Assembly (NCBI GenBank): GCA_947453445.1
Contig: CANGGP010000007.1
Span: 1-64,000, forward strand
Direction: 5' to 3'
From: Sphingobacteriaceae bacterium
GTDB taxonomy: Bacteria; Bacteroidota; Bacteroidia; B-17B0; Aurantibacillaceae
DNA length: 64,000 nt
This document shows, piece by piece, positions 34,359 to 50,797 of the stretch. Positions within the stretch are counted from its first letter, which is position 1. Each line of letters starts with the position of its first letter. Made by a program: the position numbers and the translations under genes. The notes under the pieces are model-generated. The model did not search any database and had not been told where the DNA came from. It saw only the letters and a program-made list of their open reading frames with translations.

Positions 34359-35867
34359 ATGGAAGAAACCGTAACGGCCACTGAAACTCGAAAACTCTAT
34401 CCTTACCAGGAAAAAGCAGTGACAGATATTTTTAACAAACTAAAAGTTCTACCACCCAATGCCAACTTGCTTTTTCAACTTCCTACAGGTGGCGGTAAAA
34501 CCATTATTTTTAGTGAAATTGCTAAACGTTATATCCGCGAAAACGGCCGAAAAGTTTTAATCCTCACGCACCGCATCGAATTAGGTAAACAAACCTCTGA
34601 TGTGTTAACCGAAGCCGGTATTAGCAACAAGGTCATCAACAGCGAAGTAAAACACCTGCCCCAACAAAGCGATTACGCGGCTTTTATTGCATTGGTTGAA
34701 ACACTCAACAACCGCTTACAAGAAAACGACCAGTTTCTCGAAGACATTGGTTTGGTGGTTGTGGATGAGGCACACAACAATTCATTCCGAAAAATATTCC
34801 ATTACTTTAATGATGTAAACATCCTTGGTGTAACAGCCACACCCCTCAGCAGCAATAAAAAATTGCCGCTTTACCAAACATACAACGAATTAATTGTTGG
34901 TGATTCCATCTCAGCATTAATTGATCAAGGTTATTTGTGCGAAGGTCAAACAGTATCATTCGACGTGAATTTAAGTTCATTGCGTGTGGGCAACAACGGC
35001 GAATTTACAGTGGGTTCGCATGAGCTTTTGTACACCCAAGCCATTATGCAAGGCAAATTGGTTGAGGCTTACGAAGAAATTGCCAAAGGCAAAAAAACCC
35101 TCATATTTAACGCCGGTATCCTTACCAGCCGCGCAGTTTACGAAACATTTAAAGCCAAAGGTTATCCCATTAAACACCTCGATAGTACCTTCAGTGATAA
35201 AGACCGCGCTGATACACTCGATTGGTTCCGAAAAACAAAAGACGGCATACTCACATCCGTTAGTATTTTAACCACCGGTTTTGATGAGCCCGAAGTGGAA
35301 ACTATTATTTTAAACCGCGCCACAAAGTCCTTAACCCTTTACCATCAAATGATTGGAAGGGGATCGCGTGTGTTGCCCAATAAAAAAACATTCAACATTG
35401 TTGATTTAGGAAACAACTCACGCCGTTTTAATTTGTGGCAATATCCTATCGATTGGAAACACGTGTTTGCCGCTCCGCATCTATACTTAGAGCAACGTTA
35501 CAAAGACGAGTGGGATTATGAATTGGTGAACGATTACGATTTGCCGCCTGAAATAAAGGAACGTTTCTTAAACTCAAGCGCAGAAGCATTTGTGGTGCGC
35601 GACCGTTATCTCATGGCACTTCGCAAAGGCAAAAAACCGCAAGTAGTGGTTGAAGAAAGTTTGGAAGATCACTTTGCACGCATCAAAGACAACGCCGCTG
35701 ATTTCGACGAAGCACTCGAGTTGTTTAATTTATTGAGCGAAGAAATGAAATACCGCATGAAACAATTTGGTAAATGCATCAATTCAACCAATAACCACAG
35801 CGACTGGCAAAGCCAAACATACGCTTCTAAACTGCGCCGCCGATTAATGACTTACTACGCCGAATAA
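34359..35867 (+). CDS. Superfamily 2 DEAD/DEAH-box helicase
   Basis: 502 residues from the ATG at 34359; the longer frame from 34287 adds a hydrophobic stretch translated from the promoter region. RecA-like domain 1 carries YPYQEKAVTDI (Q-motif-like), Walker A LPTGGGKTIIFSEI, VVVDEAHNNSF (DEAH) and GVTATPLSS (motif III); domain 2 carries LTTGFDEPEVETIIL and YHQMIGRGSRVLPN (motif VI). This is the UvsW/SSL2-like group. A C-terminal about 120-residue extension has no recognised domain. Role in DNA or RNA metabolism is not determinable. The stop shares bases with the next ATG (TAATG). Confidence 0.9.
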   Translation: MEETVTATETRKLYPYQEKAVTDIFNKLKVLPPNANLLFQLPTGGGKTIIFSEIAKRYIRENGRKVLILTHRIELGKQTSDVLTEAGISNKVINSEVKHLPQQSDYAAFIALVETLNNRLQENDQFLEDIGLVVVDEAHNNSFRKIFHYFNDVNILGVTATPLSSNKKLPLYQTYNELIVGDSISALIDQGYLCEGQTVSFDVNLSSLRVGNNGEFTVGSHELLYTQAIMQGKLVEAYEEIAKGKKTLIFNAGILTSRAVYETFKAKGYPIKHLDSTFSDKDRADTLDWFRKTKDGILTSVSILTTGFDEPEVETIILNRATKSLTLYHQMIGRGSRVLPNKKTFNIVDLGNNSRRFNLWQYPIDWKHVFAAPHLYLEQRYKDEWDYELVNDYDLPPEIKERFLNSSAEAFVVRDRYLMALRKGKKPQVVVEESLEDHFARIKDNAADFDEALELFNLLSEEMKYRMKQFGKCINSTNNHSDWQSQTYASKLRRRLMTYYAE

Positions 35868-36133
35868 TGAACATTCCTCGCATTTATAAATTAAGCGGTT
35901 ATTTATCGCTTTTATTCGGCATCCTCGCCGCCCTTTGTGTGTACCGCATTCAATGGATGTATTACGGCATGGGCATGGCCATGATGGGTTTTATTTTTGG
36001 CACCATCAATATTTTTTTAAACACCAAATATTTCAACGACCAAGAAAAATGGCCAAAAGGTTATTTCGGCATTTTTTTAAGTTCCCTTCCGGTTTTGTTT
36101 TTAATGTTTGTGATTAACAAGTACAAAAAGTAA
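35867..36133 (+). CDS. Small three-helix membrane protein
   Basis: 88 residues with three hydrophobic stretches (about 10-28, 33-50, 62-82) and a basic C-terminus (NKYKK). The ATG shares its first base with the helicase stop (TAATG), so it is translated with the helicase. No known family is recognised. Likely inner membrane. Confidence 0.7.
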   Translation: MNIPRIYKLSGYLSLLFGILAALCVYRIQWMYYGMGMAMMGFIFGTINIFLNTKYFNDQEKWPKGYFGIFLSSLPVLFLMFVINKYKK

Positions 36134-36160: not shown

Positions 36161-36325
36161 GGGCGTGCCCCCTGAAGAGAAAGGCCGCGAATATTTTTTA
36201 GAAGCCTTTCTGCTTCAGGGGGCGGGCTTTACGCTGCAAGTCCAAGGCACTAAGGATTCCAATGCTAACACACCAGCTCGCTCGTTAAGCCACCGGCTTA
36301 CCGCCGTGCTGCAATCCCTCACGCA
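36161..36325 (+). repeat. Dispersed structured intergenic element, copy A
   Basis: Begins GGGCGTGCCCCC. A long stem is formed by CCCCCTGAAG (36168-36177) plus AGAAAGGC (36178-36185) against GCCTTTCT (36204-36211) plus CTTCAGGGGG (36213-36222), with a single bulged G at 36212. It continues CGGGCTTTACGCTGCAAG, then a second small hairpin (TAAGCC/GGCTTA, 36285-36300) and ends CAATCCCTCACGC. The same order of blocks is found at 50509-50715 (same strand) and 41213-41371 (opposite strand). Position between a rightward gene end and the hemF stop. Not coding; a rightward frame through it is chance. Confidence 0.75.
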
Positions 36326-36351: not shown

Positions 36352-37272
36352 TCACTCCGCCCATTGTAATCCCTTTTTTAATAAAGCCAAAGTTTTTTCT
36401 TCAGCTGAATTTTTTTCCGGTTTAAAATCATATTCCCAGCCTGCTGTTTTAGGCAAACTCATCAGTATCGATTCAACACGGCCATTGGTTTCTAAGCCAA
36501 ACTTGGTGCCTTTATCATACACCAAATTAAATTCAACATAACGGCCTCTTCTTAATAGTTGCCATTGTTTGTTTTGCTCGGTGTACATTTTGTTTTTGTT
36601 GCGTGCAATCAATTCACAGTATATAGGCGCAAAGGCTTCTCCAACAGCTTGCCAAAACAAAAAGTTCTTTTCAAAACCCATTTCTTCCCCATCTTTTAAA
36701 CGATCGAAAAATATACCGCCTATGCCGCGGGTTTCTTTGCGGTGTGGAATGTAAAAATAATCATCTGCCCAATTTTTAAATTTTTCATAATAGGCCGCAT
36801 GATGCGCATCACACACTTTTTTTAAGGATTGATGGAAAAATTTAGCGTCTTCTTCAAAAATATAATGCGGGGTTAAATCAATGCCGCCACCCAACCAACG
36901 GGCGCCATCACTGGTTTCAAAATACCGCACATTCATGTGAATAATCGGTACCATTGGGTTTTTGGGGTGAATGACAATCGACACACCGGTGGCAAAAAAT
37001 TGAGGTTTTTCAGTACCCTTGTCCATGGCGCTGTGTGAATTTTCTTTGAACAAAAAATCCGGTGCAACACCCTCCACGGCACTATACAACACACCGCCTT
37101 TTTCAATCACCTGTCCTTCGCGAATAATTTTTGTAATGCCGCCGCCGCCTTCTTCACGGGTCCACTTTTCTTCACCAAAAACCGCGCCGCCATCGGCTTT
37201 TTCAAGCGCAGCGCAAATATTTGCTTGTAATTGCTGCAGCCAAGCCGAAATGTTCGCTGCGTTTATTTCCAT
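36352..37272 (-). CDS. hemF: Oxygen-dependent coproporphyrinogen III oxidase
   Basis: 306 residues. Oxidatively decarboxylates coproporphyrinogen III to protoporphyrinogen IX for haem synthesis, using O2. Hallmarks: the N-terminal GGGGITKIIREGQVIEKGG, HMNVRYFE with SDGARWLGGGIDLTPHY, CDAHHAAYYEKFKNWADDYFYIPHRKE and GRYVEFNLVYDKGTKFGL, all typical of HemF. The length matches the family (about 300). The start overlaps the end of the LysM/PBP gene by 10 bases, so it is co-transcribed with guaA. Its presence indicates an aerobic haem route, which would supply the H-NOX haem. Confidence 0.96.
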   Translation of the reverse strand: MEINAANISAWLQQLQANICAALEKADGGAVFGEEKWTREEGGGGITKIIREGQVIEKGGVLYSAVEGVAPDFLFKENSHSAMDKGTEKPQFFATGVSIVIHPKNPMVPIIHMNVRYFETSDGARWLGGGIDLTPHYIFEEDAKFFHQSLKKVCDAHHAAYYEKFKNWADDYFYIPHRKETRGIGGIFFDRLKDGEEMGFEKNFLFWQAVGEAFAPIYCELIARNKNKMYTEQNKQWQLLRRGRYVEFNLVYDKGTKFGLETNGRVESILMSLPKTAGWEYDFKPEKNSAEEKTLALLKKGLQWAE

Positions 37273-40693: not shown

Positions 40694-40767
40694 CGGGGTG
40701 TAGCGTAGCCCGGTATCGCGCCACATTTGGGATGTGGAGGTCGTCAGTTCGAATCTGGCCACCCCGA
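40694..40767 (+). tRNA. tRNA-Pro (anticodon TGG)
   Basis: 74-nt cloverleaf. The acceptor stem is CGGGGTG at the 5' end against CACCCCG at the 3' end, with discriminator A at 40767. The anticodon arm is CCACA, loop TTTGGGA, TGTGG, giving anticodon TGG (proline). The T arm contains the expected GTTCGAATC. No CCA is encoded, so it is added by enzyme. Preceded by a good promoter and followed by a terminator. Confidence 0.96.
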
Positions 40768-40917: not shown

Positions 40918-41130
40918 CAGATCAGCGCAGCTAATCTGGAAGGTAATAATGTTTGTTGTTCTTTTTTAAGTATACCTTCCAGATCAGCGCAGCTAATCTG
41001 GAAGGCAAGAAATCTAAATCAATTTTATTTGATTTTAGACTTTTCAGTTTATCGCAGCTAATCTGGAAGGTAAATAATTTAAATTATTATTATTTTGTCT
41101 TAGTCTATCCGAATCAGCGCAGCTAATCTA
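40918..41130. repeat. Four spaced copies of a hairpin-forming repeat
   Basis: Units at 40918-40943, 40979-41005, 41045-41070 and 41111-41130 share the core ATCAGCGCAGCTAATCTGG (the third has ATCGCAGCTAATCTGG; the fourth is shortened at the 3' end). Start-to-start distances are about 61-66 bases and the spacers are AT-rich with no similarity to each other. In copy 2, CCTTCCAGAT (40975-40984) pairs perfectly with ATCTGGAAGG (40996-41005) around an 11-base loop, CAGCGCAGCTA. No cas gene is present. Confidence 0.8.
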
Positions 41131-41212: not shown

Positions 41213-41371
41213 TCAGCGCCAAGGATGCGAAAGGTTTAGCTCTTTTTTGCGCTTGTCTTTTTGCGCAAAAAAAGCCGAAGCGAAGCGGAGCCTGTAGCAG
41301 CCTGACTCCCGAAGCAGCAAAACAAGTTGAGGGACGAAACGTAGTTTTGCGCTTTCGGGAGGGGCGCCCAT
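41213..41371 (-). repeat. Dispersed structured intergenic element, copy C
   Basis: On the minus strand this begins GGGCGCCCCTCCCG. An 18-base arm (41361-41344) pairs with 41323-41306 with three central mismatches; then come CAGGCTGCTACAGGCTCCGC, a hairpin TTTTTTGCGC/GCGCAAAAAA (41243-41273), and the terminal CTTTCGCATCCTTGG. The block order and the terminal CGCATCC match copy B at 50509-50715. It lies just upstream of the XRE/S24 regulator, in the opposite orientation. Confidence 0.7.
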
Positions 41372-45437: not shown

Positions 45438-45743
45438 TTTTTCATCCTTTATTGTGTGCAATTTAATTAAAAGCCAAACAGGTCAATGGCATTGCATTTA
45501 AGCGTAAGATAGACCAAAGCTAGATTTCAATGAATCACTATCGCCTGAATGCTTTCATTGTTGTCGGGTAATCGTATTTTATTTTCACTTGTATTTGGGT
45601 TATCGGGCAGTTTGGTTTTAGCCATTCCATACATTACAAGATGCATGTTTTTGTGAAAATAAATCAAAGCAAATGAGGGTCATATTAAGAACATAAAAAA
45701 AGCCGCTAAACTTTAGCGGCTTTTTAATTTATTTGAAGGCTGA
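45438..45743. other. Intergenic region with a terminator, otherwise empty
   Basis: 306 bases between a rightward and a leftward gene end. Apart from the strong hairpin at 45695-45728 no gene, repeat or promoter was recognised. Confidence 0.5.
45695..45728 (-). terminator. Bidirectional terminator after the 45744 lipoprotein gene
   Basis: AAGCCGCTAAA and TTTAGCGGCTT form an 11-bp stem with a very small loop, flanked by A-run and T-run so it can act on both strands. It is 16 bases beyond the stop of the leftward gene at 45744. Confidence 0.85.
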
Positions 45744-46391
45744 TTAATCAGTTTTTAATTTGATACCATCAGCTTTACAAGTAACGGTTTCAATCCATGA
45801 TTTACCACCTTTACCTACAACAGTTTTTCTGTCGAAACGTACATTGATGAAATAATCAATATCCGGGTATTTTTCGATTAAGCCATAAAAAGCATAATCT
45901 CTGGCAGGATCAGCAGTAGCAACCACTGCGCTACCTGTATTTACTTTAAACTTAGAAAGTAAGTTGGCTAAAAATCCACCACCTGGTTTCTTAGCTGCGG
46001 TGCCTAAACCAACGCTTGCTGAAGAATAAATGGTATTGAAGATATCATTGTCGTACAATGTACCTGTAATGGCTTCACCATTGGCAGGTGCAAAATACAT
46101 TACTTCCGAAACTTCTGTTCTGGTAGTACGACCTTGTTTAATATTCGATGCATATGTACCGGAAAGAATTTTAGCTCTTTCTTTGGTTGCAGGATTAGGA
46201 GCACCAAAGGTACCACCAACGGTTGTTTCTGATTGTAAATTTCCAACCAAAGTAAAATCGTTGCGTGAAAGTGGTTTAAAGTGCAAAGACATGTATTTAA
46301 TGTCTTTTTGTAACGTTGTACTCGCGCTACCGCAAGACATCATCCAAAAGGCCGAAGCGGCAATGAATGAATAGGTTATTATTTTTTTCAT
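45744..46391 (-). CDS. Lipoprotein of unknown function, paralogue of the next upstream gene
   Basis: 215 residues from the ATG at 46391; the open frame from a TTG at 46415 adds eight residues before the signal. Lipobox WMMSC. The C-terminal section (about 165-215, FYGLIEKYPDIDYFINVRFD to a final VTCKADGIKLKTD) aligns with the C-terminus of the 46444-46884 product (YRLLDANPNFDYLTNIRIS to IVAKGITLNTEK), marking them as paralogues. The middle carries an extra about 70-residue segment. Function unknown; likely inner-leaflet outer-membrane lipoprotein. Followed by a strong terminator. Confidence 0.7.
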   Translation of the reverse strand: MKKIITYSFIAASAFWMMSCGSASTTLQKDIKYMSLHFKPLSRNDFTLVGNLQSETTVGGTFGAPNPATKERAKILSGTYASNIKQGRTTRTEVSEVMYFAPANGEAITGTLYDNDIFNTIYSSASVGLGTAAKKPGGGFLANLLSKFKVNTGSAVVATADPARDYAFYGLIEKYPDIDYFINVRFDRKTVVGKGGKSWIETVTCKADGIKLKTD

Positions 46392-50396: not shown

Positions 50397-50797
50397 ACTC
50401 AGAAAATACTATTCTTTAAAATTACGGCAATAATTTCGGTAAAAAAGGTTGATTTTTTTAAAAAAAGTTATTATAAAATGGATGATTTTTTTGAGTTCTA
50501 ACTGTTTTTGGGGGCACCCCGTGAAGCAGAAAAACTCGAAACTCTCTGATTATTTTTCTGCTTCACGGGTCGGGCTGCGTAGTTTATCCCAACGAATGTA
50601 GGGAGGCTCCGCTGAACACAATCTGGCTAATTAAGCCACAGGCTTAATTCCCTGCTACAGTTTTTTGGCCGCAAAGAACGGGCGGCCAAAAGAACTACCC
50701 CTTCGCATCCCTTGCCCAAATATCCGTGCTTTGGCTTTATGATTTACTCGGCAAGTAAATTCATAGAATAGATTAATAGTAAAAAGAAATTAGGGGT
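50397..50797. other. Intergenic region carrying the structured element copy B
   Basis: 401 bases between the TPR gene start and the T9SS gene stop. The centre (50509-50715) is occupied by the structured element described separately. The remainder is AT-rich with no recognised gene. The promoter of the TPR run should lie at 50397-50460 but no clear TAnnTTTG was found. Confidence 0.5.
50509..50715 (+). repeat. Dispersed structured intergenic element, copy B (longest)
   Basis: Begins GGGGGCACCCC. CCCGTGAAGCAGAAAAA (50518-50534) pairs perfectly with its complement at 50553-50569 (17 bp). Then come GTCGGGCTGCGTAG and GGCTCCGCTGAAC, a hairpin TTAAGCC/GGCTTAA (50631-50647, loop ACA), a second hairpin TTTTGGCCG/CGGCCAAAA (50663-50691), and the end CCCTTCGCATCCCTTG. 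Copy A shares the start, the TAAGCC hairpin and the final TCCCT; copy C shares the CGGGAG/GGCTCCGC blocks and CTTTCGCATCC. Confidence 0.75.

What the first reader, a model, noticed from the sequence alone, without database searches (positions are those of the whole stretch)
50509..50715. Family of long structured intergenic elements: three copies in 64 kb (36161, 41213, 50509)
Each copy has the same block order: a GGGCG/GGGGGCA-CCCC start, a 16-18 bp stem whose sequence differs between copies but whose pairing is kept (AGAAAGGC..GCCTTTCT; GTGAAGCAGAAAAA; CCCGAAAGCGCAAAAC), then a GTCGGGCT- or CAGGCTGC-type block, one or two smaller hairpins, and a terminal CGCATCC/AATCCCTCACGC. Keeping pairing while changing the bases is the mark of a selected RNA or DNA structure. 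I recall similar GGGCGT-CCCC...CGGGCT elements being common between genes in many Bacteroidota but know of no function.
Basis: partly seen in the sequence, partly recalled or inferred. Interest (0 to 1): 0.68.

Follow-up and report, generated by a model that had tools for sequence, protein, structure and literature searches.

The report
Mobile folded-DNA repeat, mislabelled Flavo-1 RNA
The three intergenic repeats are copies of a dispersed, hairpin-rich DNA element that is the longer, opposite-strand form of the "Flavo-1 RNA" family; the evidence says it is a mobile piece of folded DNA, found in Bacteroidota chromosomes, plasmids and even single-stranded DNA phages, rather than the small RNA it is catalogued as.

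Summary
The copies lie at 36161-36324 (+), 41216-41369 (minus strand) and 50510-50717 (+); a covariance model finds exactly these three in the window (E 4e-13 to 2e-4) and about 49 in the genome. They form a three-way junction: a 5-bp stem joins the element's ends, then an optional, sequence-variable hairpin, then a long interrupted helix. Base pairs covary strongly (98.8% of core cells paired; covariation 0.58 versus 0.18 shuffled), almost without G-U wobble. Rfam's Flavo-1 (RF01705, "sRNA") is the same element read on the opposite strand and cut to its inner helix; the window copies themselves score below any Flavo-1 threshold. The copies behave as mobile DNA: orientation is random relative to genes, the hemF-locus copy is missing from relatives with the same gene order, 97-100% identical copies sit at unrelated sites, one relative carries the element inside a miniature transposon with 8-bp target duplications, and two ssDNA microviruses carry it while eight relatives lack it. 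It is also fixed in two Bacteroides plasmid families. The enzyme that moves it is unknown; Y1 transposases show no association. Best reading: a mobile folded-DNA repeat. The main rival is a single-strand initiation or promoter site.

The parts
36161..36324 (+). Element copy 1, full length (type B core, long P2)
   Evidence: R1 74.4 bits, E 3.6e-13; R2 40.1 bits
36163..36167 (+). Copy 1, 5' arm of outer stem P1 (GCGTG), pairs with 36320-36324 (CACGC)
   Evidence: sequence; P1 covariation
36168..36222 (+). Copy 1, variable hairpin P2 (CCCCCTGAAG...CTTCAGGGGG)
   Evidence: sequence
36223..36319 (+). Copy 1, P3/internal loop/P4 core (CGGGCT...AATCCCT): the part that Rfam Flavo-1 models on the opposite strand
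36320..36324 (+). Copy 1, 3' arm of P1 (CACGC)
   Evidence: sequence
41216..41369 (-). Element copy 2 (minus strand; P1 GCGCC/GGCGC, P2 CCTCCCGAAAGCG...GGGAG, TCAGGCT, tail CATCCTTGGCGC)
   Evidence: R1 33.9 bits, E 3.8e-5
50510..50717 (+). Element copy 3 (P1 GGGCA/TGCCC, P2 CCCCGTGAAGCAGAAAAA...TTTTTCTGCTTCACGGG, TCGGGCT, long P4 with extra hairpin, tail CATCCCTTGCCC)
   Evidence: R1 30.4 bits, E 1.9e-4
35867..36133 (+). 88-aa ORF ending 27 nt upstream of copy 1 (context)
36352..37272 (-). hemF (coproporphyrinogen oxidase) whose 3' end faces copy 1 (context); same gene pair without the element in relatives

Best explanation
The copies belong to a non-coding, mobile DNA repeat that spans and extends the Flavo-1 motif. 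Shown: about 75-210 nt that fold into P1 (5 bp joining the ends), an optional variable hairpin P2, and a long helix P3-internal loop-P4 with conserved unpaired bases. Shown: copies are dispersed between genes without orientation bias, present or absent at orthologous sites, recently multiplied in some genomes, and able to enter plasmids and ssDNA phage genomes. Inferred: the selected form is folded single-stranded or extruded DNA, and a trans-acting recombinase or transposase of unknown identity recognises the P3 internal-loop core to move or copy it, with insertion favouring T-rich sites (WTTT before the element, RRA after it). P2 and P4 are exchangeable modules that drift or are swapped while pairing is kept. 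In one relative a DDE-type miniature transposon has captured the element and now carries it.
For: Structure: A1 95.3% cells paired, covariation 0.363 versus 0.130 shuffled and at most 0.105 slid; core A3 98.8% paired, 80 doubly changed cells, 0.581 versus 0.175 shuffled and at most 0.122 slid, no G-U cell outside one fixed column pair; no covariation in the flanks, so the fold ends at P1. DNA rather than RNA: strict Watson-Crick pairing; no orientation bias to genes (++22, --22, +-22, -+14); published F. psychrophilum data find Flavo-1 hits indistinctly sense or antisense of transcribed regions, many outside them (PMC9723704). Mobility: the hemF gene pair lacks the element in 16 syntenic relatives, with one remnant; G017 copies 97-100% identical with unrelated outer flanks, inside a TIR element with 7-8 of 8 bp target duplications read in about 14 copies; two Microviridae carry it at different positions and 8 relatives lack it; inoviruses; 82 Bacteroidales plasmids. 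Distribution: Bacteroidota, plus MAGs labelled Spirochaetota.
Against: No mobilising enzyme found. TIR and target duplication are absent outside G017 (0 of 88 above the shuffled 99% level). Some copies are retained at orthologous sites with compensatory changes (upstream of ssb in four species), and copies are fixed in two plasmid families, which suggests a useful function at least there. The wobble test on the two strands is contradictory (P2 favours the Flavo-1 strand, P1 the other). Sparse G-U pairing is an indirect argument and no matched RNA control was run. No exact empty site with near-identical flanks was obtained.
Confidence: 0.6

Rival explanations
1. It is a single-strand initiation site or ssDNA promoter (sso/ssi/Frpo-like): when the DNA is single-stranded (phage entry, conjugation, lagging-strand template) it folds and lets primase or RNA polymerase start. 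Chromosomal copies would be functional or left-over sites.
For: Present in ssDNA microviruses next to rep and in inoviruses; fixed between a recombinase gene and the ArdC-like ssDNA-binding gene in pBF9343-type conjugative plasmids; strict Watson-Crick DNA fold; in the window's genome the R1 strand sits on the C-rich strand in 20-21 of 25 cases (p 0.0009 raw, 0.004 gene-corrected).
Against: Sporadic in phages (8 relatives and FLiP lack it); opposite orientation to gene sense in microviruses versus inoviruses; strand bias not seen in G057 (8:9) and weaker elsewhere (26:13, p 0.053), and the gene-corrected skew failed its rpoC calibration in most genomes; tandem arrays and 20-50 chromosomal copies are unusual for such sites.
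Confidence: 0.15
2. It is a genuine trans-acting small RNA or cis-regulatory RNA, as Rfam Flavo-1 is labelled (sRNA).
For: Strong conserved secondary structure with internal-loop motifs; P2 wobble pattern favours the Flavo-1 strand; UNCG-type P2 loops in Flavobacterium; conserved copies upstream of ssb and citrate synthase.
Against: No orientation bias to neighbouring genes; published transcripts do not follow it (PMC9723704); nearly no G-U pairs; many copies per genome, with tandem and tail-to-tail pairs; found in plasmid and phage genomes in different contexts.
Confidence: 0.08
3. It is an ordinary MITE moved by a DDE transposase.
For: In G017: TIR GGGTCAAGCGGAA/GGATCAATCGGAA and 8-bp target duplications.
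Against: Such ends are absent in the window's genome (pattern at background in G000) and around 88 other copies; the conserved unit ends at P1, not at a TIR.
Confidence: 0.08
4. It is a REP-like repeat moved by a Y1 (RAYT/TnpA-REP) transposase.
For: Dispersed, intergenic, hairpin-based, paired in inverted orientation; Y1_Tnp next to the single R1 match in G050.
Against: No association across 150 genomes (Fisher p 0.10, Spearman 0.10, p 0.21); 10 of 38 high-copy genomes have no detected Y1_Tnp; few elements within 2-3 kb of 60 Y1_Tnp genes.
Confidence: 0.05

Closest known systems
Flavo-1 RNA (Rfam RF01705; Weinberg 2010, PMC2864571)
   Same: Same P3, internal loop and P4 core with identical pairing; hits coincide with R1 copies, on the opposite strand, in the coordinate pairs compared.
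   Different: Rfam's 76-nt model reads the other strand, ends inside the element, and has no P1 closure and no P2; labelled sRNA; it does not detect the window copies at all.
REP/REPIN elements
   Same: Dispersed non-coding intergenic hairpin DNA, many copies, inverted pairs.
   Different: Longer, three-way junction, no Y1_Tnp association.
MITEs
   Same: Non-autonomous mobile DNA; in G017 the element is inside one.
   Different: TIR and target duplication absent elsewhere.
Integron attC and CTXphi attP (folded ssDNA recombination sites)
   Same: Works-like analogy from general knowledge: stem sequence free, pairing and unpaired bases fixed, variable terminal hairpin.
   Different: Different consensus, no integrase or cassette context seen; analogy only.
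sso/ssi sites and Frpo ssDNA promoters
   Same: Folded-ssDNA cis-elements of conjugative plasmids and ssDNA replicons.
   Different: Orientation and presence here are not consistent enough to assign.

Membership tests
Flavo-1 (RF01705) | Covariance-model score at or above the gathering score (42 bits) | tested here: not met
   Window copies: no hit even at E<5. Other copies do pass, e.g. G000:C14 62.3 bits and G000:C48 59 bits, L001 55.6 bits.
Flavo-1 (RF01705) | P3, RY pair and P4 architecture with conserved internal loops | tested here: met
   Same helix order as the Rfam structure line, on the opposite strand; window copy 1 scores 40.1 bits with the core model R2, copy 2 only 16.4 bits, copy 3 not found.
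Flavo-1 (RF01705) | Acts as an RNA (sRNA) | not testable with these tools
   No transcript data here; PMC9723704 reports no consistent strand or transcription.
REP/RAYT repeats | Association with a Y1 (PF01797) transposase | tested here: not met
   p 0.10 and 0.21; 10 of 38 high-copy genomes without a detected Y1_Tnp.
MITE of a DDE transposon | Terminal inverted repeats with target-site duplication | tested here: not met
   Met only in G017; 0 of 88 other copies, window included.
Integron attC | attC consensus boxes and integron context | not tested
   No dedicated search was run; conserved motifs read as GGGCG, TCGGGCT, ATCCCTNACGC.
ssi/sso/ssDNA promoter | Supports priming or transcription on ssDNA | not testable with these tools
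   Needs an assay; orientation evidence inconclusive.

The most novel reading that the evidence does not exclude
A single folded-ssDNA cis-element is shared across Bacteroidota chromosomes, conjugative plasmids, microviruses and inoviruses, and is recognised by a host factor as an initiation, promoter or recombination site: a functional analogue of attC or ssi with no known protein partner, hidden for 15 years under an sRNA label on the opposite strand.
Probability: 0.25. Interest if true: 0.85.

Novelty: new variant of a known kind. Interest (0 to 1): 0.62.

Why it matters
Flavo-1 is listed in a survey among the most abundant bacterial sRNA families (PMC9029176) and is catalogued in Rfam as a small RNA. 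If it is a mobile folded-DNA element, that entry is wrong in kind, in strand and in extent. It would also mean that an uncharacterised system moving or using structured single-stranded DNA operates across a major phylum and reaches its plasmids and ssDNA phages, and its partner protein could be sought directly with the conserved core as bait.

Tried and rejected
RAYT/Y1 transposase as mobiliser: G050 suggested it, but 60 Y1 loci and 150 genomes did not support it. Recurrent neighbour genes: no shared transposase in the flanks. Extended outer stem or promoter in the T-rich/A-rich flanks: no covariation, no TAnnTTTG register. TIR/target duplication as a general rule: rejected. Strand assignment by wobble pairs: contradictory. 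Replication-strand bias: strong in the window's genome, but not reproduced in G057 and not calibrated by rpoC. Two further viral-contig patterns found nothing. FLiP phage carries no copy. Microvirus Xer/dif integration sites (PMC3091885) were not compared with this element's sequence. Literature searches by element sequence found nothing relevant.

Full report
What is there. A covariance model built from 34 copies of the window's genome and its relatives finds, over the whole window with filters off, exactly three matches: 36161-36324 (+), 41216-41369 (minus strand) and 50510-50717 (+); copy 1 was in the training set, copies 2 and 3 were not. The genome (3.72 Mb, 153 contigs) has 38 matches at E<=0.1, and a second model of the core adds about 11 copies, of which those read in full lack a standard P2 hairpin or carry it at the edge of recognition. 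A simple pattern for the 5' half gives 17 matches against 0 for the reversed control.

Anatomy. Each copy begins GGGCG and ends NACGC. The two ends pair (P1, 5 bp). Its inner pairs change freely with their partner: position 10/179 is GC 17, UA 9, AU 5, CG 2, and the window copies use GCGTG/CACGC, GCGCC/GGCGC and GGGCA/TGCCC. Inside P1 come P2, a hairpin whose sequence differs between copies, and a long helix: P3 (GGG/CCC), a symmetric internal loop with a covarying purine-pyrimidine dinucleotide pair, then P4, a terminal hairpin of variable length. Copies lacking P2 exist (L232, L252, L253, L548-L550). In alignment A1 the P3 pairs never vary, but in more distant copies they become CCG/CGG, GCG/CGC, GTG/CAC, CTG/CAG and others. 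On core alignment A3 (39 sequences, including two copies from Spirochaetota-labelled MAGs), 98.8% of cells pair, 80 cells are doubly changed, and the covariation score is 0.581 against 0.175 shuffled and at most 0.122 slid. RNAalifold finds the same helices on A1 independently. Flanks do not covary, so the structure ends at P1. The 5' flank is T-rich (WTTT) and the 3' flank RRA.

What it is called. Rfam's Flavo-1 (RF01705, type sRNA) hits copies in relatives, for example L001 at 55.6 bits, gathering score 42. In the coordinate pairs compared, Flavo-1 and R1 matches coincide on opposite strands. The printed alignment shows that the Rfam structure is P3, internal loop and P4 read on the complementary strand. 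The Rfam model ends inside the element: it has neither P1 closure nor P2. It does not see the three window copies at all, even at E<5. The original paper lists Flavo-1 with 'y' under 'RNA?' and 'n' for cis-regulation (PMC2864571). A F. [quoted passage not shown] A survey lists it among the most abundant sRNA families (PMC9029176).

RNA or DNA. Four observations favour DNA. Pairing is nearly strict Watson-Crick: in A3 no G-U cell occurs outside one fixed column pair. Orientation relative to neighbouring genes is random. Published transcripts do not track the element. It occurs in plasmids and ssDNA phages. A wobble-asymmetry test did not settle the strand: P2 has A-C over G-T 30:10 (by cluster 15:5), pointing to the Flavo-1 strand, while P1 points the other way. 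This part is inference, and no matched RNA control was computed.

Mobility. The 36161 copy lies between an 88-aa ORF and hemF. Sixteen relatives with the same gene pair carry no detectable element there; one has a remnant resembling P1 plus P2. In relative G017, copies 97-100% identical sit at unrelated loci. They are the body of a miniature transposon with ends GGGTCAAGCGGAA/GGATCAATCGGAA and target duplications matching at 7-8 of 8 bases in about 14 copies, read by eye. Within that frame P2 differs between copies, so P2 is an exchangeable module; near citrate synthase in three species P2 is homologous while the P4 domain is of different types. Outside G017 no TIR or duplication signal exists: 0 of 88 copies exceed the shuffled 99% level. 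Some copies are inherited: one upstream of ssb is shared by four species, with the dinucleotide pair changing GT/AC, GC/GC, AT/AT.

Phages and plasmids. A Flavobacterium copy used as query hits 82 Bacteroidales plasmids, 48 of them typed conjugative, and two phage records. The element is present in two complete-looking Microviridae: MG945641 (Phage_F capsid, Rep) upstream of rep, and IMG/VR contig L564 (5676 bp with terminal repeat, Phage_F, Rep) directly after the rep stop codon. Eight related microviruses lack it, as does FLiP. Two contigs with filamentous-phage genes (pIV-like; Zot-like and Rep) also carry it. Relative to gene sense the R1 strand runs forward in both microviruses and backward in both inoviruses, so a fixed strand role is not supported. 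In pBF9343-type plasmids it sits between a recombinase gene and an ArdC-like gene in about 30 records, and in a second family upstream of a JAB-domain gene in 29 records; there it is fixed, which leaves room for a function.

Which enzyme. Y1 transposases were the obvious candidates and fail: no association over 150 genomes (p 0.10; Spearman 0.10, p 0.21), and 10 of 38 high-copy genomes have none detected. No recurrent transposase lies in the flanks. In the window's genome the R1 strand prefers the C-rich strand (21/25 raw, 20/25 gene-corrected), but G057 shows 8:9 and five other genomes 26:13, and the corrected skew did not agree with rpoC orientation in most genomes, so no replication-strand claim is made.

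Distribution. Models confirm L296, L330 and, weakly, L279. MAG misbinning cannot be excluded for the last group.

Verdict. This is an extended, opposite-strand form of a known motif. What is new is the reading: a three-way-junction DNA element, mobile, modular, and present in ssDNA phages and conjugative plasmids. The step from structure to mechanism, the partner enzyme, is open.

Noticed in passing
window 40970-41130: Downstream of the tRNA at 40694-40767, a ~20-nt sequence (cagcgcagctaatctggaag) is repeated at least three times in direct orientation with short AT-rich spacers.
   Followed up: no
window 45630-45824: A stretch that draws many sub-threshold Rfam hits (MicC, RcsR1, Phe_leader and others) on both strands, probably a strong low-complexity hairpin.
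   Followed up: no
L381-L409 (G017), e.g. L395, L401: A miniature transposon family with 8-bp target duplications whose internal hairpin modules differ between otherwise near-identical copies, some with extra tandem hairpins.
   Followed up: partly
L056 (G000:C2:35629-36039): Tandem units of a short ORF end (MADDIDVTVFEEVKAKV-like) followed by an element copy, repeated at about 268 bp.
   Followed up: no
L115 (G050:C3:216500-221500): A lone Y1 transposase gene surrounded by short palindromic repeats (CAACCCCTGCGGGGTTG type), which look like its own REP elements, distinct from the element studied.
   Followed up: no
L431-L447 (G057): A different outer frame (AGGAGCTNNTCCCG..CGGGGCTAGG) replaces P1/P2, and many copies start right after the T-run of an intrinsic terminator.
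   Followed up: partly
L091, L092, L095, L103: An element copy 62 nt upstream of ssb conserved in four species, with P2 nearly identical while flanks diverge: possible local function.
   Followed up: partly
NZ_CP072250.1 and 28 related plasmids (L559): Bacteroides/Parabacteroides plasmids of mostly ~70-140 kb carry a fixed copy upstream of a JAB-domain gene; in L559 it is near a defence island (retron HNH, TIR, SIR2, RloB).
   Followed up: no
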